In this document: piece after piece, positions 2,035 through 12,019 of the stretch
Layout: each line of letters opens with the position of its first letter
Position numbering within the stretch: the first letter of the stretch is position 1
From: Nanobdellati archaeon
Lineage (GTDB): Archaea > B1Sed10-29 > JAGVWA01
NCBI GenBank assembly: GCA_018304505.1
Contig: JAGVWA010000014.1
Span: forward strand, 1 to 54,204
Direction: 5' to 3'
DNA: 54,204 nucleotides
Notes under the pieces: model-generated
The model's database searches: none
What the model was told of the DNA's origin: nothing
Seen by the model: the letters and a program-made list of their open reading frames with translations, nothing else
Translations under genes and position numbers: made by a program

Positions 2035-2402
2035 GGCAGTGTCACGCTTATTGTATCATTTTTTGTAACATTATATATGAGTATTTCAGTGCCGATCACG
2101 GTGGATCTTGCAGATTTTACTTCAAGTTCGTAAATCCCATTTTCGAGCTGCGTAGACGCTGTTCCGTTTGTCACGGGCAGCTCTGTAATGGTCTCCCCCG
2201 CCCTGCTGATTTTCACACTGCAGTCCTCACACAAATAATCCCCGACGCGTGTAAAGTCGCTTGCGATGTCGCCAAATGTGTAGCTCACGTGGAGCTCAAT
2301 TGTTGAAACGCTCCCTGGGGTTTGTGCTGTTTTTGGCATAAGGGCCACGATGGCTGTTGTTGCAATAACAATCACAATCGAGGCAATCAGCACATTTTTC
2401 AT
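2016..2402 (-). CDS. Small secreted or membrane-anchored protein upstream of subtilase
   Basis: This is a 128-residue protein of unknown function. Residues 1-24 form a signal peptide or anchor (MKNVLIASIVIVIATTAIV). The rest is beta-rich and polar, with a CEDC motif that could form a disulfide or bind metal. I chose ATG 2402 rather than an earlier ATG because a TATA box lies at about 2424-2431, which places transcription start at or next to 2402 (leaderless). Its end overlaps the subtilase start by 19 bp. An accessory or inhibitory role for the protease is possible from context but is not shown by the sequence. Confidence 0.7.
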   Translation of the reverse strand: MKNVLIASIVIVIATTAIVALMPKTAQTPGSVSTIELHVSYTFGDIASDFTRVGDYLCEDCSVKISRAGETITELPVTNGTASTQLENGIYELEVKSARSTVIGTEILIYNVTKNDTISVTLPWIGPV

Positions 2403-2487
2403 GCTTAAACTAGGGTATTTGGGTATAAAAAAGCTTGTCATTGGGGGCATATTTAAAAGTAACGCCCACTTATTTTATACGAGGTTC

Positions 2488-5400
2488 ATGGTACGACTAG
2501 AGCGCCTTAAGCTGAAGAATTTCAAGAGCTTCAAGAACAGCATTATCCCAATATCAGAGGGCTACACAACAGTCATTGGGCCCAACGGTAGCGGCAAGTC
2601 TAATTTTCTCGACTCGATCTACTTCGCCCTCGGCAGCTCTAGCATGAAGAACATGCGCGTCAGCAAGCTCATGGACCTGGTTCACCCAGATTCCGATACG
2701 GCTGAAGTGTCATTGGAAATGCGGGACGGCGATGAACTCCACGCTATTTCGCGGACCATAGACAAGAACGGCAACTCAATTTTCCGGCTGAATAAGAAGC
2801 GGACGACGAAGTTCCACATCGAGGAACTGCTGAATAAACTGCATGTCCGGGCTGATGGGCACAACATCATAATGCAGGGGGACATAACCCGCGTTATCAA
2901 GATGACGCCGATGCAGCGCCGTGGTGTCATTGATGAAGTCTCGGGCATTGCGGAATACGAGGATAAAAAACAGGATTCTCTGCGGGAGTTGTCAAAGGTC
3001 GAGGCAAAGTTAAACGAGGCTAGCATCATAATGAGCGAGCGCAAAGGCTATCTTGCCGTTCTTGAAAAAGAGCGCCAAGAAGCCCAGGATTACACAAATG
3101 TAAAGCAGGACGTTAAGGCGCACAAAGCCTCGATTATCAAAAAGGAGCTTGAGTCTGCTGAAAAAGGCTACGACAAGGAACTTGAGGGGATATCCCAACT
3201 GCGGCTGGAGGTAGAGAAGATAATACGGAACAAGGACAACATATTGGGGGACATTTCAGGTTTGGAAAAGCAATATGATGAACTCAACAAGAGGATCATG
3301 CAGGAGTCTGACAAGCGGCAGATGGAAGCAAGAAAAGAAATCGAGGCACTGAATACCCAGGTTGGGATTCTGGAAAACAAGATGCAGGCGAGCAAGGAAT
3401 CGCTTGAGAAGAACCGCGAGAAGAAATCGCAGCTGCAAATCGAGGACTCACGGATAGGCAACGAGATCGATGCAAAGGAGCGCACTCTCCAGAAGAAAAT
3501 GTTTGAAGAGTCGGACCTGCAAAAGGAGACAGCGGAAGTGGCGCTTAAAATAAAAGAGCTTGAAGAAAAAACCGGAAACCTGGATCAACAAATGGAAAAG
3601 ATTTACAGCGAGATCGATAGGATAAATCAACAGGTCGAGGAAAAGAAGGAGAAGTTCCACAAGATCGATGCACTGATCAAATCAACGCGCGAAAGGTTGA
3701 ACCTGAAGCAGGCCTCACTGGATGAGCATGAGGGCGACACGAAAAAAGGACGGCAAAGGGAAGACGAAATCAGAAACAAAATCAATGAACTTGAGTTACA
3801 GGTGAAACAACTCAACAGCAACTTCCAGACAGAGGAGCGTGGGCTTGAAAAACTCTATGCGCGTGAAAAGGAAGTGCAGGGGCTTTATAAGACGTATTCG
3901 CAGGAGCTCGATAAGGCTAAGGAAGAGCTGTCCATGTTGAGGACGAGGGTGTCCAGCGCGCAGGCTGTCAGTGGGCTCAGCAGGGCCGTAGAAGAAGTCA
4001 CAGGAAACGCAAGCCTCAAGGGCATCCTCGGCACAGTCGCTGACCTTGTTTCATACAAGGATGAGTACGCCCACGCGATCGAGGCAGCAGCGGGCAACAG
4101 GATGTTTTATATAGTAACAGAAACAGCGCAAGACGCAACCAACGCAGTGAAGTTCCTGAAGCAGGAAAAAATCGGCAGGGCCACGTTTCTGCCGCTGGAC
4201 AAAATCAGGCCCCCTAACGACGTAAAGGAGGCTAAGGAAGCGCGATCAGCAAAAGGGGTTATAGATTACGCAATCAACTTGGTCACCTTCAACCCCCTCA
4301 TCAGCGAGGCCATGAAGTACGTGTTCTCTGATACGTTAGTGATAAGCAACATCGATGACGCTAAGGCCATCGGCATAGGAAAGGCCAGAATGGCCACGCT
4401 TGATGGCGATCTTGTAGAAGCGTCAGGTGTAATTACAGGCGGCTCGGCAAAGAAAACATCAACACTGGCGGATGCAAAGCGCCTTGATTCCATAAAGAAG
4501 ACGACGCAGGAGCTGGAGCAAAACAAGCAAGCAATAACCCAAGAATTGGAAAAGCTCAGAAGCGACATGGATACCGTACGGGATGAGAAGATTAACTACG
4601 AGCTCGAATTAAAGGAACACCAAATAATGCTTAAGGAATGGCAAAACAAGCTCAAGGATTATGAATCAGAATCGCAGCAGGACGGAAAGAAAATCAGTTC
4701 AGTTGAAAAGGAGTTGCAGGGCCTTGAAAAACTGATAGCGCAAAAAACGCAAGAAGCCACTGAAGCCGAAAATGAAATATCTGCACTGCTTCAGAAGCGC
4801 CATGAGATAAAGGAAAAAATAAGCTCGCCACAGTCGGTTGAGCTCAATGAGGAAATAAAGAAGCTCAAAAGATCACTCGAGGTGCTGCGAGAAAATCACT
4901 CAAAGGCACGGGTAGAGGTAAGCACATTGAAAGCTGAAATCGAGAGCGTTCTCTTAGTGAATCGAAAAAACCTGGCAAAGGGGATCAAGGAAATCGAGCA
5001 ATCGTCAACTGACATCAACAAGAAGATAGGAGAAATAACGCAAGAGAGGAACAAGCTGATTGGATTTGTCAAGGAAAAAGAGGAGAAGGCGCGTGAACTG
5101 GCTTCATCAATGAATGACTTGTACGAGGCCCGAACAGAGCTTGAGGACAAGCGCAGGGGAATGATTGAACACACCGGAGAACTTGACAGGGAAAAAGACC
5201 GCTTGAAAGAGCAGGTGTCTGAACGAGAGCTGAGCAAGGCGAAAATCGAGATAAGGCTCACTGACCTGAAGGTAGAATGGGAAAGATATAAGGAAGTTGA
5301 AGTGCTCGACAAGGGCATCAGGGCACTGAAAGAGGACTTGCAGCTGCTGGAGCAAAAGCTCGAAGGCTTTGGAAACGTAAACCTGAAAGCCATAGAGATG

Positions 5401-6021
5401 TACGATCAGTACAGCAAGGAACTCAAGGAAATGCAGACAAAAGGGGAGAAACTCATGACGGAGAAAGACGCCATAATGAACATGATAATGGAAATCGAGG
5501 ACAAGAAGATCCACGCATTCATCGAAACCTTTAACGCCATCAACGAAAACTTTGATAAGTACTTCAAGGAGTTCTACCCCGAACAGGGCTCCTACGGCAT
5601 GCTGAAACTCGAGAGCCAGGAAAAACCGCTAGAGTCCGGCCTATTGTTGGAGGCAAAGCCTGCACACAAGCACCTGCGAACAATAGACGCAATGAGCGGC
5701 GGGGAGAAAACCATAACTGCTATCGCGTTCCTGTTCGCGATACAGGCGTACAAGCCAAGCCCGTTCTACATTCTTGACGAGATCGACGCAGCCCTTGACC
5801 AGGCCAACTCCATTCGTGTGGCCAACATGCTCAAAAAGTTCGCAAACGAAATGCAGTTCATAATAGTGACGCACAATAAGCAAGTCACAAGGGAATCAGA
5901 TCAAATAATCGGCATACACATGAACAAGGAAGGTTCCTCAGTTGTTGAGATCGACATGAAGAGCATTGCAGGCGCGGCAAACGCTGCTGTCGTGAATGTT
6001 GAGAAGGCGGCGGCAGTCTGA
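2488..6021 (+). CDS. smc: Chromosome partition/condensin ATPase SMC
   Basis: SMC is the ABC-type ATPase that forms DNA-embracing rings for chromosome organisation. The 1177-residue protein has Walker A GPNGSGKS at residues 31-38, a long first coiled coil (about 170-490), a hinge (about 495-655, with the usual Gly-rich turns near ITGGS), a second coiled coil (about 660-1030), the ABC signature MSGGEK (about 1067) and Walker B FYILDEIDAALD (about 1090). ATG 2488 fits: a TATA-like box at about 2449-2457 precedes it, and the protein then begins at the family start MVRLERLKLKNFKSF. The upstream 46 in-frame codons are not part of the family. No ScpA or ScpB gene is adjacent. Confidence 0.97.
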   Translation: MVRLERLKLKNFKSFKNSIIPISEGYTTVIGPNGSGKSNFLDSIYFALGSSSMKNMRVSKLMDLVHPDSDTAEVSLEMRDGDELHAISRTIDKNGNSIFRLNKKRTTKFHIEELLNKLHVRADGHNIIMQGDITRVIKMTPMQRRGVIDEVSGIAEYEDKKQDSLRELSKVEAKLNEASIIMSERKGYLAVLEKERQEAQDYTNVKQDVKAHKASIIKKELESAEKGYDKELEGISQLRLEVEKIIRNKDNILGDISGLEKQYDELNKRIMQESDKRQMEARKEIEALNTQVGILENKMQASKESLEKNREKKSQLQIEDSRIGNEIDAKERTLQKKMFEESDLQKETAEVALKIKELEEKTGNLDQQMEKIYSEIDRINQQVEEKKEKFHKIDALIKSTRERLNLKQASLDEHEGDTKKGRQREDEIRNKINELELQVKQLNSNFQTEERGLEKLYAREKEVQGLYKTYSQELDKAKEELSMLRTRVSSAQAVSGLSRAVEEVTGNASLKGILGTVADLVSYKDEYAHAIEAAAGNRMFYIVTETAQDATNAVKFLKQEKIGRATFLPLDKIRPPNDVKEAKEARSAKGVIDYAINLVTFNPLISEAMKYVFSDTLVISNIDDAKAIGIGKARMATLDGDLVEASGVITGGSAKKTSTLADAKRLDSIKKTTQELEQNKQAITQELEKLRSDMDTVRDEKINYELELKEHQIMLKEWQNKLKDYESESQQDGKKISSVEKELQGLEKLIAQKTQEATEAENEISALLQKRHEIKEKISSPQSVELNEEIKKLKRSLEVLRENHSKARVEVSTLKAEIESVLLVNRKNLAKGIKEIEQSSTDINKKIGEITQERNKLIGFVKEKEEKARELASSMNDLYEARTELEDKRRGMIEHTGELDREKDRLKEQVSERELSKAKIEIRLTDLKVEWERYKEVEVLDKGIRALKEDLQLLEQKLEGFGNVNLKAIEMYDQYSKELKEMQTKGEKLMTEKDAIMNMIMEIEDKKIHAFIETFNAINENFDKYFKEFYPEQGSYGMLKLESQEKPLESGLLLEAKPAHKHLRTIDAMSGGEKTITAIAFLFAIQAYKPSPFYILDEIDAALDQANSIRVANMLKKFANEMQFIIVTHNKQVTRESDQIIGIHMNKEGSSVVEIDMKSIAGAANAAVVNVEKAAAV

Positions 6022-7484: not shown

Positions 7485-8510
7485 TCAGTTTCCGATGTAT
7501 CTTGAATAGAGGCTCTTGGCCTTGCTTTCGTCATTGGTTCCTTGGATGATGCACCGGCCATTGTTGAATAAGTTGAACGTGTATGGCTTTTTCCTAAACC
7601 GCAGCAGAAACATGTTTGAGTTTAACAGTTCAATGCCCGACCCAGAATCCGTTTTTTTGATTTTCTCTTCAAGGGCCTTGACGTCTACTGCTTTTTCTGG
7701 CAAAATCTGGACGCTGTTTCTGCCGCAAAGCACCGTGGCCCTTTTCTGCTTGTCTTCAAGCCTGGAAAATTGGCGCTGTTTGCACACGCGGCATTGCGGG
7801 TTTTGCTTCATTTTAGAAACGGTAAAGTCATTGATTGACAGGTTAAACGACAGCAGCTGCCCGGATTTTTTCCCACCCGTCAGGCATTTCATGGCTTCAG
7901 AGACCTGCAAAGACGCTGCTGTTGACACGGCTTCACTGGAAACACCGGAAATGTCGCATGTCTCTGGCCGCCTTGGGGGGTTCCTGAAAACGCACTGCAT
8001 GCAGATTTTGTCGTCAAACAGCGCTGCCATGCCCTGGTTTTTTATAACCGAGCCAAAGACGTATGGAATCGCGAGCTTTACACACGTCTCGTTAATAATG
8101 AGTCTGGTTTCGAAATTGTCAGTCCCGTCAATAACAAGGTCATGGCTGCTGATGATCTGCTCTGCGTTTTCTGTGTTAAAGTCCTCAACCATTTCATGAA
8201 CTTCGATGTATGGGCTGGCTTTTTTAGCTTCGATTGACAAAGCAATTGCCTTGGGCAGCCCGATTTGTGGTTCTGTGTACTGTTGCGTTGCCAGGTTCTC
8301 CGGCTCGACAAAGTCCCGGTCTACGAGCGTCAATTTTGGTATGCCGATTTTCGCCATCGCCAGGGCAGTGCTTGAGCCCAGCGATCCGCAGCCGATGATG
8401 CATACCTTGGATTTGAGGGCCTTGCTGAATCCTTTGCCCCAGAAGGTGTGCAGGCGGGCGTGTTTTTCCTGCGGTTGCTGCCCCGGTAATTGGGGGTGTT
8501 GTGGGTACAT
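7485..8510 (-). CDS. E1-like adenylyltransferase (ThiF/MoeB/UbaA family)
   Basis: This family adenylates the C-terminal Gly-Gly of small ubiquitin-like sulfur carriers (SAMP, MoaD or ThiS type). The 341-residue protein has the nucleotide-binding GCGSLGS (residues 40-46), the DRDFVEPENLATQQY segment, the DGTDNFETR motif (about 137-145), a zinc-type pair CMQC and CRVC, and a Cys in TCDISG at the usual catalytic position. A C-terminal extra domain of about 90 residues (after the second Cys pair) is not typical of MoeB. It is divergent from a small gene and a ThiI-type PP-loop gene, which suggests a shared role in tRNA thiolation or sulfur transfer. The start is a leaderless ATG. Confidence 0.85.
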   Translation of the reverse strand: MYPQHPQLPGQQPQEKHARLHTFWGKGFSKALKSKVCIIGCGSLGSSTALAMAKIGIPKLTLVDRDFVEPENLATQQYTEPQIGLPKAIALSIEAKKASPYIEVHEMVEDFNTENAEQIISSHDLVIDGTDNFETRLIINETCVKLAIPYVFGSVIKNQGMAALFDDKICMQCVFRNPPRRPETCDISGVSSEAVSTAASLQVSEAMKCLTGGKKSGQLLSFNLSINDFTVSKMKQNPQCRVCKQRQFSRLEDKQKRATVLCGRNSVQILPEKAVDVKALEEKIKKTDSGSGIELLNSNMFLLRFRKKPYTFNLFNNGRCIIQGTNDESKAKSLYSRYIGN

Positions 8511-8544
8511 TTATTAATAGTAATAGTTGCCCAATTTAAGGGTA
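8510..8544. promoter_or_regulatory. Compact divergent promoter for E1-like and ThiI-companion genes
   Basis: Only 33 bp separate the two divergent ATG codons. A TATA-like run (TTTATTAATAG, about 8510-8520) sits at the correct distance for a transcript beginning at ATG 8544. A second AT-rich box on the other strand (CTTAAATTGG, about 8532-8541) sits at the correct distance for a start at ATG 8510. Each promoter would therefore overlap the other's start, and both mRNAs would be leaderless. Confidence 0.5.
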
Positions 8545-8843
8545 TGTCTGACTTCTTTGTGATGAAGCCGTGCCAGAAGGCTACTGCTTTTGAGGTTGTT
8601 CCGCAAAAGCAAATGTCAGTGGATTTTGATAGCCTTGGCAAGGTCTTTGAAACCGTCATACGCATCGAAGGAATGATGATCCTCAACATCCAGGGGGTTC
8701 AGGCAACGGTTTATCCGCGGGGCAAGATCCTGATAAGGACTACTGACAGGGACAAGGCGGAGCAGGCCGTGAATTCTATCTATGAAATTGCCGTCAAGGA
8801 AGGATGGTTCAAAGAAGATTCAACTCGGGGGAGTGGGCAATGA
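8544..8843 (+). CDS. Small conserved-looking protein coupled to ThiI-like PP-loop enzyme
   Basis: This is a 99-residue protein of unknown function. The second half (GVQATVYPRGKILIRTTDR, then an acidic helix AEQAVNSIYEI) resembles one strand-helix unit of a TBP half-repeat or a small alpha/beta RNA-binding module; this resemblance is weak. The stop overlaps the next start as ATGA, so translation is coupled to the PP-loop enzyme. It may replace the RNA-binding THUMP part that the truncated ThiI lacks; that is inference from position. The upstream in-frame codons to 8490 are rejected because the TATA box fits ATG 8544. Confidence 0.65.
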   Translation: MSDFFVMKPCQKATAFEVVPQKQMSVDFDSLGKVFETVIRIEGMMILNIQGVQATVYPRGKILIRTTDRDKAEQAVNSIYEIAVKEGWFKEDSTRGSGQ

Positions 8844-9454
8844 AGGGCGTAATGTTGTTGTCAGGAGGCATTGATTCCCCGGTTGCCATGCACCTCATTA
8901 GCAAGGTGCACGACATCGAGGCGCTGCATTTTTCCAATGGGGAATTTGCAGGCAAGGAGTCAGTAGACAAGTCAATACTGATAGCGAAAAAGCTTGGCCT
9001 AACCAGGTTGATGGTTATCGACATCGCGCACCTGCTTAAGGAGATCGCCACAAAGTGCTCAAGGAAATATTATTTTGTCTTGATGAAGCGGTTCATGCTG
9101 CGCATTGCCGAGAAAATCGCATTGCTGAATGAATGTGCGTTCATCTGCACAGGTGACAGCCTTGCCCAGGTGTCCAGCCAGACCATGAAGAACCTGGAGG
9201 TTGTCGATGCAGTCACACCAATGCCTGTGCTGAGGCCGCTTATTGGATATGACAAGGAAGAAATCATTTTGTTGGCCAAGGAAATCGGGACATTTGATTT
9301 GTCGAAAGGTCCGGAGATGTGTGACATACTTGGCCCAAAGCACCCTGCCACCAAGGCAAGGCTTGAGCATGTCATGGAAGAAGAGAAAAAGATCAATGTT
9401 GCGGCGCTTGTTGATAATGCAGTGGCGTCTGCGCGTTGGGCAGCAGTGCCATAA
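8840..9454 (+). CDS. thiI: ThiI-like PP-loop ATPase domain protein
   Basis: The PP-loop domain of ThiI adenylates U8 of tRNA before sulfur insertion. The 204-residue protein contains the PP-loop LLSGGIDSPVA (residues 5-15), ICTGDSLAQVSSQT (the family's GES-type segment), PVLRPLIGYDKEEI, and a CDILGPKHPATKA motif near the C-terminus that matches the ThiI Cys-x-P-x-HP-T-K pattern. The N-terminal ferredoxin-like and THUMP domains of full ThiI are absent, as is a rhodanese domain. ATG 8840 overlaps the previous stop by one base set (ATGA). The small upstream protein may supply tRNA binding. Confidence 0.85.
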   Translation: MKGVMLLSGGIDSPVAMHLISKVHDIEALHFSNGEFAGKESVDKSILIAKKLGLTRLMVIDIAHLLKEIATKCSRKYYFVLMKRFMLRIAEKIALLNECAFICTGDSLAQVSSQTMKNLEVVDAVTPMPVLRPLIGYDKEEIILLAKEIGTFDLSKGPEMCDILGPKHPATKARLEHVMEEEKKINVAALVDNAVASARWAAVP

Positions 9455-9460
9455 CAGAAT

Positions 9461-9470
9461 GATTTTTATA
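9461..9470 (+). promoter_or_regulatory. TATA box of the membrane TBP-repeat gene
   Basis: The stretch TTTTTATAT, just after the ThiI-like gene, lies about 25 bp upstream of ATG 9493. It therefore supports a leaderless transcript and decides against the in-frame TTG at 9484. Confidence 0.55.
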
Positions 9471-9492
9471 TGCCCACTGTTTCTTGTGCACA

Positions 9493-11643
9493 ATGAGCCG
9501 TGTAAGTGCAGCAAATAAAATGGCAGCGGGCCGTATGGACTTTAAAGTAGAAAACATCCTAGCCACGGCAAAGTATCAAGGCAAGATTGATGTTGACAAG
9601 GTTTCAAGGAAGTACTGGAGCAGCCGATACCATGAAGAGGCGTATGGGGCTTGCCAGGTTAAGTTCAGGGAATCAGGCGCTACATTTGGCTTGTTTGATC
9701 ACGGCAAGTTTACGATAACAGGGGCAACGTCAGAGACGGAACTCGATGATGCTGTAAGACTATTCGCGAAAAAAATAGTTCCGCCACTGAGCGACCGTAA
9801 ATTGATAGTTACAGATGTTAAAATCGAGAACATCCTCGCCACCGCTGACCTAAAGCAGCACATCGACCTTGTGAGGCTCGTGAGGAAAAGCAGGGGCATA
9901 AAATATGACCCTAAGAAATTCCCCGCGGCGTTTGTGCATTTTAAAAAACCTGATGGCACCGTCACACTGTTCGCGAGTGGCAAGCTGACTGTTACTGGTT
10001 TGTCAACCCTGCCGAGCATCAATGAAGTCGTGTCTAAAGTGAAGTCGATTGTAAGCCAGCAGGCTGCACCTGCAAAACCAATATCATTAAGGCCAAAGAA
10101 GATGCGCGCGCGCGTCGAGAACCCCGCCCTGCATTTTGGGGGAGCCTTTGTGATGCCTAAGAGGAGAAAGAGCCCGTTGGATTTCAATGTTGAGAATGTT
10201 CTGGCAACCGCAGACCTTGACACAAACCTTGACTTGTTCCGCATTACAGAGAAAATCAAGTCAGCAAGGTTCAAGCACGGCCCAATGGGGGTAGTGCAAA
10301 TCGATTTAAATGATCCCGATTCTACAATGGCGATGTTTGCTAATGGCAAGATCACTTCAGCAGGGTGCGCGTCGCAAAAGGAACTCTCGGGGTGCTTCAG
10401 GAAAGTTTACGCCATGATAAAGCCACCTTTGTCTGATGACGAACCTCGGCTTTCAAAAATACAAGTTGAGAACATCCTTGCTACTGCTGATTTTAAGAAG
10501 CCCCTGAATTTGCAGAAGATAGCGAGGGCAGCAAAGAACGCAGAGTACAAACCCGCAACCTTTCCCGCGGTCGTTCTGAGGTTTAAGAAACCAGATGCTG
10601 CAGTCGAGTTGTTCGAAAATGGAAAATTGACGTGCATTGGCACCAGGACAATAAAGGATCTCGATGATGTGCTTGCGCAGGCAGCTGCACTGGTTTATTC
10701 AGTGATGCCGCGCCTCGCGGAACGGCCTGCAAAAACAAAGGTAGTGAAGGCAGGGAAGGTAAAAGCGCGACCACGGGTGATTCTGTGGCACAAGCAAAGG
10801 CACGCGAAGCTGAATGCATTTGTTTTAGTGGTGTTGCTGCTGGCCTTGTTCAGCACGGCCCTGATGCGCAGCGATTTAACAGGCCCTATTAACGGTTTTC
10901 CAGAAATCGTTTTCCCGCCGCTGGTGCCGGTTGCGCCGGTTGTTAATGAGACATTTGTTCCTCAAATTCCATCTGGAGGGATTTCCGGCATTGCCCAGGG
11001 GCCTGGCGGTGAGCGGATTGCGCAGCTAATCGTCACTATGAGTGAGCCTACTGACAAGGCCGCGGCCGCAGTGCTGACGTTTTACAATGGCGAGAACCAG
11101 ATATTCTATCCTGAAAAAATCGGAAACGTTTATGACGCGGGCTTGAAAAGCGAGCTTGATGACCCATTTATTATCGAGATAAACTGCAATAGCCTTGGCA
11201 GGCGCGTGGTGTCAAAGTATCAGTTTAATTTCACAGAGCCTATCATGGATTATGTTGCTACGTGCGATTCATTAAGCGGGAGCACTTACACCGCCTTATC
11301 GCGAAAAACAGCTTCTACATTACCCGGAACGCCACAGCAGGAACCAGTGCAGAGCGTGCCAACCGCGCCAGAAAAGTTTTTCATCAACGTAAAACTCGTG
11401 ACATCTGGCAACCAAACAGGGCAGAACATTACCTTGGTGTATGACGATTCGCCCGCGGATCCCGAAAAGCGGACAGAGGTGAGCAACCTTACGAACTCTG
11501 AGGGCTTCACGCAGTTCTACATATTTTCAAGCAACCTTTACTCGCCGTCGTTGTTCTATCAGTTTACCTATCCGTGCGTTGGCGGTGGAAGGAATCATGG
11601 GGAGTACATCAACGTTTACACTACGGTCATATTGAGTTGCTGA
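9493..11643 (+). CDS. Membrane-anchored protein with four TBP half-repeats
   Basis: I see four copies of the TATA-binding-protein half-repeat in this 716-residue protein: about 17-97, 108-187, 230-310 and 322-403. Each opens with VENILATA or a close variant and ends near the stirrup pattern F-x-x-GK-x-T-x-x-G. This equals two complete TBP saddles joined by a basic linker (188-229). The residues at the DNA-intercalating Phe positions, always 17 apart, are Tyr51/Phe68, Phe143/Phe160, Met265/Phe282 and Phe357/Phe374. A basic stretch (411-439) and one membrane helix (about 440-458) follow, then about 258 polar residues with several N-x-T sequons, predicted outside. Known TBPs are soluble, with two repeats. 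A membrane-tethered TATA binder, perhaps released by proteolysis, is inference. Confidence 0.88.
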   Translation: MSRVSAANKMAAGRMDFKVENILATAKYQGKIDVDKVSRKYWSSRYHEEAYGACQVKFRESGATFGLFDHGKFTITGATSETELDDAVRLFAKKIVPPLSDRKLIVTDVKIENILATADLKQHIDLVRLVRKSRGIKYDPKKFPAAFVHFKKPDGTVTLFASGKLTVTGLSTLPSINEVVSKVKSIVSQQAAPAKPISLRPKKMRARVENPALHFGGAFVMPKRRKSPLDFNVENVLATADLDTNLDLFRITEKIKSARFKHGPMGVVQIDLNDPDSTMAMFANGKITSAGCASQKELSGCFRKVYAMIKPPLSDDEPRLSKIQVENILATADFKKPLNLQKIARAAKNAEYKPATFPAVVLRFKKPDAAVELFENGKLTCIGTRTIKDLDDVLAQAAALVYSVMPRLAERPAKTKVVKAGKVKARPRVILWHKQRHAKLNAFVLVVLLLALFSTALMRSDLTGPINGFPEIVFPPLVPVAPVVNETFVPQIPSGGISGIAQGPGGERIAQLIVTMSEPTDKAAAAVLTFYNGENQIFYPEKIGNVYDAGLKSELDDPFIIEINCNSLGRRVVSKYQFNFTEPIMDYVATCDSLSGSTYTALSRKTASTLPGTPQQEPVQSVPTAPEKFFINVKLVTSGNQTGQNITLVYDDSPADPEKRTEVSNLTNSEGFTQFYIFSSNLYSPSLFYQFTYPCVGGGRNHGEYINVYTTVILSC

Positions 11644-11677: not shown

Positions 11678-12019
11678 TTAGAGAATCGCCCTGAAGCTTG
11701 CCTCTATTCGTCTTTTTGTCCAGCTTGATAAGGCATAGAGGAAGAATCCGCCGACGATGAAAACGATGAATATCAGCCTGATTAAGTCAAAGCTTTCTAT
11801 CCCTGCTGGTTGGAAAATGTCGAGTAGGAGAAGGATAAATATCGAGCTCGTGATGAGGCTTATGTAGGTGATCTCGTTCGATATTTCCTTTAAATATTCG
11901 ACAAGCAGGTAGTCGTAAGTGAATTGCGTGCCCATGGCTCTGGATGTGCCTGAAGGTTTTGCTTTGCTGTGGGGTGTTGCTTTGCTGCGGCTTGGTTTCA
12001 TGGTGGACGTTGCTGCCAT
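11678..12019 (-). CDS. Small two-helix membrane protein
   Basis: This is a 113-residue protein of unknown function. A basic, Ser/Thr-rich N-terminus (about 30 residues) precedes an amphipathic stretch and two transmembrane helices (about 53-70 and 81-98), then a short basic tail. The TATA box at about 12041-12048 fits a leaderless start at 12019. It stands alone between the TBP-repeat gene and the ribosomal stalk operon. Confidence 0.6.
   Translation of the reverse strand: MAATSTMKPSRSKATPHSKAKPSGTSRAMGTQFTYDYLLVEYLKEISNEITYISLITSSIFILLLLDIFQPAGIESFDLIRLIFIVFIVGGFFLYALSSWTKRRIEASFRAIL

What the first reader, a model, noticed from the sequence alone, without database searches (positions are those of the whole stretch)
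9493..11643. Membrane-tethered protein with two complete TATA-binding-protein saddles
Four TBP half-repeats (each with VENILATA-like start) lie in tandem, followed by one membrane helix and a glycosylatable outer domain. Even-numbered repeats keep both intercalating Phe residues; repeat 1 has Tyr/Phe and repeat 3 has Met/Phe. I know of no TBP fused to a membrane anchor, and duplicated TBP is unusual. A signal-responsive basal factor released by proteolysis, or a protein tethering promoters to the membrane, are possible.
Basis: partly seen in the sequence, partly recalled or inferred. Interest (0 to 1): 0.93.

Follow-up and report, generated by a model that had tools for sequence, protein, structure and literature searches.

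The report
Membrane-anchored protein with two TBP saddles
A tiny uncultured archaeon carries, besides its ordinary TATA-binding protein, a second one doubled into two DNA-binding saddles and fixed to the cell membrane by one helix with an outside domain, which suggests that a general promoter-binding protein was turned into a membrane-bound regulator or DNA anchor.

Summary
One uninterrupted 716-aa frame (window 9493-11643, +) carries four Pfam TBP lobes (whole-protein E 1e-71; each lobe 1e-13 to 1e-22). They arose by pairing and then block duplication, and both pairs model as full TBP saddles. A basic linker, one transmembrane helix and an orphan acidic outer domain follow, predicted N-inside/C-outside. 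Composition and codon use are even throughout, so a frameshift or chimeric join is unlikely. A separate ordinary tbp and a single TFB gene lie elsewhere in the genome.

All four lobes keep the minor-groove Asn, the second intercalating Phe and Gly-Lys. None keeps the intact glutamate pair that contacts TFB, which is near-invariant in 110 other lobes. I therefore read it as a membrane-bound DNA-binding regulator, or possibly a DNA tether, built from TBP, and not as a basal factor. Function is inferred.

No orthologue was found: 0 of 18 other genomes of its phylum, and none credible in 393 other archaeal genomes. None of 143 other TBP-lobe frames has more than two lobes.

In passing: relatives use single-lobe TBPs of 88-124 aa, several two-lobe TBPs have recently duplicated or converted lobes, and one relative encodes a TBP behind a lipoprotein signal.

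The parts
9463..9471 (+). TATA-like element TTTTTATAT centred 26 nt upstream of ATG 9493; fits a promoter for a leaderless transcript (inferred)
   Evidence: Direct reading; 38-nt gap after the preceding ThiI-like gene that ends at 9454
9493..11643 (+). Whole gene, 716 aa: four TBP lobes, basic linker, one TM helix, outer domain
9529..9786 (+). TBP lobe R1 (aa 13-98); Tyr51/Phe68 at the intercalating positions
   Evidence: R1-R2 model pLDDT 89.5
9805..10068 (+). TBP lobe R2 (aa 105-192); Phe143/Phe160; TFB-contact pair reads Asp139/Lys141
10069..10170 (+). Basic linker between the two saddles (aa 193-226, net charge +9)
10171..10434 (+). TBP lobe R3 (aa 227-314); Met265/Phe282
   Evidence: pLDDT mostly 92-98
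10450..10710 (+). TBP lobe R4 (aa 320-406); Phe357/Phe374; TFB-contact pair reads Lys353/Ala355
10711..10809 (+). Basic juxtamembrane linker (aa 407-439, net charge about +11)
10810..10866 (+). Transmembrane helix LNAFVLVVLLLALFSTALM (aa 440-458), predicted N-in/C-out by the positive-inside rule
10867..11640 (+). Predicted outer domain, acidic (net -11), 4 Cys, 5 N-glycosylation sequons, no recognised family

Best explanation
The gene encodes a single-pass membrane DNA-binding regulator made from TBP. Shown by sequence: four TBP lobes forming two tandem saddles, then a basic linker, one membrane helix and an orphan outer domain. Inferred: the N-terminal part lies in the cytoplasm and binds TA-rich minor groove from the membrane, the outer domain receives an external signal, and because the TFB-contact residues are lost the bound saddles do not start transcription themselves. 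They would cover or bend promoter DNA at the membrane and so repress or modulate TBP/TFB-dependent promoters, or hold those loci near the membrane. It would work like a ToxR/CadC-type transmembrane transcription regulator whose DNA-binding part is TBP and not a winged helix.
For: Four significant TBP lobes. Both saddles model as TBP: R3-R4 pLDDT mostly 92-98, R1-R2 mean 89.5, Foldseek TM-score to solved TBPs about 0.75-0.91. The DNA-facing Asn, second Phe and Gly-Lys are kept in all four lobes although synonymous codons of the R1R2/R3R4 duplication look randomised (23 of 61 shared residues use the same codon), which argues for long-term selection on the DNA face. The TFB-contact glutamates are lost while the cell's ordinary tbp keeps them. 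The cytoplasmic part is strongly basic (+31) and the outer part acidic (-11). Topology matches the definition of transmembrane transcription regulators, DNA-binding domain plus TM region (PMC10269533). The genome has its own ordinary tbp and one TFB gene, so this protein is an extra.
Against: No DNA binding, localisation, expression or target is shown. R1 and R3 have lost one of the two intercalating Phe each, and both Phe pairs are needed for efficient bending by M. jannaschii TBP (PMC4041446), so each saddle may bend poorly. The N-in/C-out topology rests on charge bias and hydropathy only. The outer domain has no known fold. The gene is known from one MAG, and no neighbouring target gene was identified.
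Confidence: 0.42

Rival explanations
1. A structural tether: the two saddles clamp AT-rich chromosomal DNA and fix the nucleoid or an origin/segregation site to the membrane or envelope, with no gene-specific regulation.
For: Basic lobes and basic linkers (+31 in total); two saddles in tandem favour avid, less specific binding; loss of TFB contacts; an SMC gene lies 3.5 kb upstream in the same window (2350-6021).
Against: An outer domain of about 257 aa with 4 Cys is more than a plain anchor needs. SMC proximity may be chance, and the gene is absent from all relatives, which also have to segregate DNA.
Confidence: 0.25
2. A membrane-held basal factor: proteolysis releases the TBP part, which then recruits TFB and RNA polymerase to a stress regulon.
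For: Topology like RseA-type S2P substrates (established knowledge); S2P homologues present; a two-saddle TBP part is intact.
Against: The TFB-contact glutamates are lost in every lobe while the lone TFB in the genome is conserved enough to score strongly. S2P homologues are present in all 14 control genomes. No cleavage site can be recognised.
Confidence: 0.1
3. The TBP lobes no longer bind DNA; the fold serves as a protein- or ligand-binding part of a cell-surface or envelope protein.
For: Intercalating Phe lost in R1 and R3; stirrup motif Glu-Pro-Glu-Gln-Phe-Pro-Gly changed; long branches. A relative, G012, carries a TBP behind a lipoprotein signal, so TBP folds can be exported in this phylum.
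Against: Asn, second Phe and Gly-Lys kept in all four lobes; strong positive charge on the lobe side of the membrane; no signal peptide on this protein.
Confidence: 0.15
4. Artefact: assembly join, frameshift or pseudogene.
For: Single MAG; no orthologue.
Against: One open frame of 716 codons, even GC3 and codon score across all parts, gap-free R1R2/R3R4 alignment with the same PPLSD linker, archaeal ribosomal genes L1, L10 and L12 immediately downstream.
Confidence: 0.03

Closest known systems
Archaeal TATA-binding protein (PF00352; PRK00394)
   Same: Lobe fold, lobe order, kept minor-groove Asn, second intercalating Phe, Gly-Lys
   Different: Four lobes in place of two (or one, in its own phylum); TFB-contact glutamates lost; fused to a membrane helix and outer domain; Val to Leu and Ser to Thr in the first strand of all four lobes
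Transmembrane transcription regulators (ToxR, CadC, archaeal TTRs; PMC10269533)
   Same: Single-pass protein with cytoplasmic DNA-binding part and an outside part; meets that paper's definition (DNA-binding domain plus TM region)
   Different: DNA-binding part is TBP; the main text of that survey does not mention TBP; no sensing domain recognised; no target known
Single-lobe TBPs of this phylum and of many Micrarchaeota MAGs
   Same: Nearest branch in the 39-row tree (weak support); probable stock from which the four lobes were made
   Different: 88-124 aa, soluble, TFB-contact glutamates intact
Lipoprotein-signal TBP of relative G012 (217 aa, L175 8791-9444)
   Same: Only other TBP-lobe protein found here with a membrane-targeting segment
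   Different: Two lobes; N-terminal lipobox, so the lobes face outward; no specific kinship in the tree
Bacterial TBP-lobe proteins (RNase HIII N-domain, RnlA; PMC7221094)
   Same: TBP lobe used for nucleic acid binding outside basal transcription
   Different: Single lobe fused to nucleases; no membrane part

Membership tests
TBP family (PF00352) | Significant match to the TBP profile | tested here: met
   Whole protein E 1.1e-71, four stretches, cut-off exceeded by each lobe
TBP family (PF00352) | Saddle fold of paired lobes | tested here: met
   Models pLDDT 89.5 (R1-R2) and mostly 92-98 (R3-R4); TM-score about 0.75-0.91 to solved TBPs
TBP as basal transcription factor | Glutamates C.L3.2 and C.L3.4 that contact TFB | tested here: not met
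   H/E, D/K, K/G, K/A in R1-R4; Glu in 92% and 97% of 110 other lobes (roles from PMC7221094)
TBP as basal transcription factor | Two pairs of intercalating Phe per saddle | tested here: not met
   Three of four positions per saddle kept: Tyr51/Phe68 + Phe143/Phe160, and Met265/Phe282 + Phe357/Phe374
TBP as basal transcription factor | TATA binding, bending and TFB recruitment | not testable with these tools
   Needs biochemistry
Transmembrane transcription regulators | DNA-binding domain plus at least one predicted TM region | tested here: met
   definition from PMC10269533
Transmembrane transcription regulators | DNA-binding part in the cytoplasm | tested here: inconclusive
   Positive-inside bias and sequon placement agree with it, but topology was not measured
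Transmembrane transcription regulators | Controls transcription of target genes | not testable with these tools
   No expression or binding data

The most novel reading that the evidence does not exclude
A general transcription factor has become a one-component transmembrane receptor: the cell regulates promoters from the membrane with a doubled TBP that binds TATA-like DNA but cannot recruit TFB, a dominant-negative membrane TBP. It was built in a phylum where the ordinary TBP is still, or again, a single-lobe unit.
Probability: 0.3. Interest if true: 0.92.

Novelty: new variant of a known kind. Interest (0 to 1): 0.76.

Why it matters
TBP is regarded as one of the most invariant proteins of archaeal and eukaryotic transcription, soluble and two-lobed. 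A TBP doubled, stripped of its TFB contacts and fixed in the membrane would be a basal factor re-used as a membrane receptor or DNA tether. The surroundings matter as much. The same phylum uses single-lobe TBPs, the state assumed to precede the ancient duplication, and several lineages seem to have paired the lobes again. Whether a one-lobe TBP works as a dimer with a conserved TFB contact on each half is a question that can now be put to the bench.

Tried and rejected
Frameshift, chimera or assembly join: rejected by even GC3 and in-frame codon scores and by the gap-free internal duplication. Phage or virus origin: no match in phage records or viral contigs. Orthologues: first genome-contig scan with the whole protein found none; outer part absent from the class and from 394 archaeal genomes apart from one 17.9-bit piece over stop codons, taken as chance. 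Other multi-lobe TBPs: genomes with extra TBP matches were searched in two sets of 20 and 42 genomes and long frames inspected; none has more than two lobes. Outer domain: no Pfam family (best 0.058), no PDB relative (best 0.58), low-confidence model. Synteny: the gene next to the ThiI-like gene is not conserved, and the quadruple TBP is absent there in the 12 relatives inspected. Exact kinship of the four lobes is unsure because of long branches.

Full report
OBSERVATION. The frame at 9493-11643 (+) is real and uninterrupted. Pfam TBP matches it at E 1.1e-71 in four stretches, and a genome-wide search scores the lobes one by one at E 5.9e-16, 4.5e-19, 1.1e-13 and 6.8e-22, all over the curated cut-off. 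Hydropathy gives one membrane segment, LNAFVLVVLLLALFSTALM, mean 2.48. The part before it carries net charge +31 and no N-glycosylation sequon. The part after it carries -11, four cysteines and five sequons, of which the sequon excess alone is only suggestive (P = 0.056 against shuffles). By the positive-inside rule the TBP part is inside.

IS IT ONE GENE? GC, GC3 and the in-frame codon score do not change along the frame. R1-R2 aligns to R3-R4 over about 190 residues without a gap, including the same connecting PPLSD. Archaeal ribosomal protein genes L12, L10 and L1 lie downstream and a ThiI-like gene upstream. A TATA-like TTTTTATAT centred 26 nt before ATG 9493 fits a promoter of its own. 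I did not test how common such boxes are in this genome.

STRUCTURE. With archaeal TBPs as alignment rows, AlphaFold2 gives R3-R4 block values mostly 92-98, and a second job gives R1-R2 mean 89.5, pTM 0.82. Foldseek finds only TBPs at the top for both: TM-scores normalised to the target about 0.75-0.91 for single TBP chains in the full-length search, 0.83-0.91 for R1-R2. So there are two complete saddles. The membrane helix is modelled at 429-459; the outer domain is not resolved.

WHICH CONTACTS ARE KEPT. I compared the four lobes with 110 other lobes. The Asn of the first strand (100% elsewhere), the second intercalating Phe (100%) and the Gly-Lys after it are kept in all four. The first intercalating Phe is Tyr, Phe, Met, Phe in R1-R4. 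The two stirrup glutamates (92% and 97% elsewhere) read H/E, D/K, K/G and K/A. Ravarani and colleagues (PMC7221094) name two acidic residues of that loop in the C-terminal lobe (C.L3.2, C.L3.4) as direct TFB contacts. I equate them with the two Glu of Glu-Pro-Glu by spacing and loop position, not by a structure calculation. All four lobes also share Val to Leu and Ser to Thr in the first strand, a signature not seen as consensus elsewhere. Both Phe pairs are needed for efficient bending by M. jannaschii TBP (PMC4041446), so bending by this protein may be weaker.

HISTORY. A tree of 114 lobes makes the four one clade, with R1 and R3 as sisters (99/90). The smaller tree also pairs R2 with R4 (95/40), and places the clade next to a single-lobe TBP of the same order with modest support (93/92). 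Branches are long, so the placing is tentative. The reading that fits is single lobe, then pair, then duplicated pair. The duplication is old: of 61 identical residues between the halves only 23 use the same codon, and nucleotide identity is 49% with no long run. Yet the DNA-facing residues persist, which implies selection.

DISTRIBUTION. The rest of the genome has one ordinary tbp (two nearly identical lobes and a 145-aa Lys-rich tail) and one TFB gene. The outer part has no match in the other 18 genomes of the phylum and none credible in 393 other archaeal genomes. The whole protein has none in the named genome collection (the window's own genome may be left out there), phages or viral contigs. 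Of 147 distinct TBP-lobe frames collected, four are truncated or full copies of this gene; of the other 143, 101 have two lobes, 42 one, none more. Absence is limited by the sampling: fast look-ups, one genome per species, no metagenome scan, and the 394-genome TBP search lists only its best matches.

WHAT IT MOST LIKELY DOES. Shown: TBP lobes, saddles by model, membrane segment, loss of the TFB-contact pair. Inferred: cytoplasmic side, DNA binding, sensing by the outer part, regulation. The nearest working analogue is the transmembrane transcription regulator, defined as a DNA-binding domain plus a TM region in one protein and reported from 367 of 404 archaeal species (PMC10269533); that paper's main text does not mention TBP. 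I prefer a membrane-bound regulator that occupies TA-rich promoter DNA without recruiting TFB (0.42), then a structural DNA tether (0.25), then loss of DNA binding (0.15), then a released basal factor (0.10).

NOVELTY. I call it a new variant of a known kind (transmembrane regulator, TBP domain), since both parts are known and the join is new, and since it rests on one MAG.

CONTEXT THAT MAY MATTER MORE. In this phylum TBP is usually one lobe of 88-124 aa with both Phe and the TFB-contact glutamates intact. Some named MAGs deposited as Micrarchaeota and Diapherotrites show the same, and two near-complete genomes of another family (G046, G380) have exactly one single-lobe TBP match. Many genomes of the phylum have two single-lobe paralogues, which could pair. 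In G000, G005 and several Micrarchaeota the two lobes of the fused TBP group together or share 51-98 nt identical tracts, pointing to repeated re-duplication or gene conversion. I cannot tell from these data whether single lobes are ancestral or secondary.

Noticed in passing
L016 1486-1755, L021 1492-1755, L023, L028, L030, L033, L034, L039, L042 and others; L147, L149: Single-lobe TBPs (88-124 aa, stops on both sides, one PF00352 lobe, both Phe and the TFB-contact glutamates intact) are the usual TBP of this phylum and occur in many Micrarchaeota MAGs; near-complete G046 and G380 have exactly one TBP match. Two paralogue groups in the class suggest homo- or heterodimers.
   Followed up: partly
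L175 8791-9444 + (G012:C1): A 217-aa TBP with two diverged lobes behind a lipoprotein signal (MGNKFVYAGIAFLAVAILLAGC), so apparently outside the cell and lipid-anchored; PF00352 E 6.4e-19.
   Followed up: partly
L001 1489-2028 (own ordinary tbp), L025, L056, L058, L064: Two-lobe TBPs of these lineages have lobes 74-85% identical, with identical DNA tracts of 51-98 nt between the lobes: recent re-duplication or gene conversion inside tbp.
   Followed up: partly
L001 about 2029-2463: The ordinary TBP of this genome carries a 145-aa tail with 52 Lys/Arg, like a histone H1 tail; related Lys-rich extensions sit at the N-terminus of single-lobe TBPs in G013 and G012.
   Followed up: no
window 7485-8843: A ThiF/MoeB-like protein whose C-terminus weakly matches TBP, and next to it a small protein (8514-8843) without a family; part of a ThiF / small protein / ThiI-like cluster conserved in some relatives. 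ThiF relatives in other archaea show the same TBP-like C-terminus (L180).
   Followed up: partly
L177 (G283:C1, 420-aa frame): One TBP lobe (E 9.1e-22) placed before Lrp/AsnC-type HTH and ligand-binding domains: a TBP lobe fused to a gene regulator in another archaeal lineage.
   Followed up: partly
window 2350-6021 +: Full-length SMC gene 3.5 kb upstream of the membrane TBP; may be chance.
   Followed up: no
window 11678-12019 -: Convergent 113-aa predicted membrane protein without a family directly after the membrane TBP gene.
   Followed up: no
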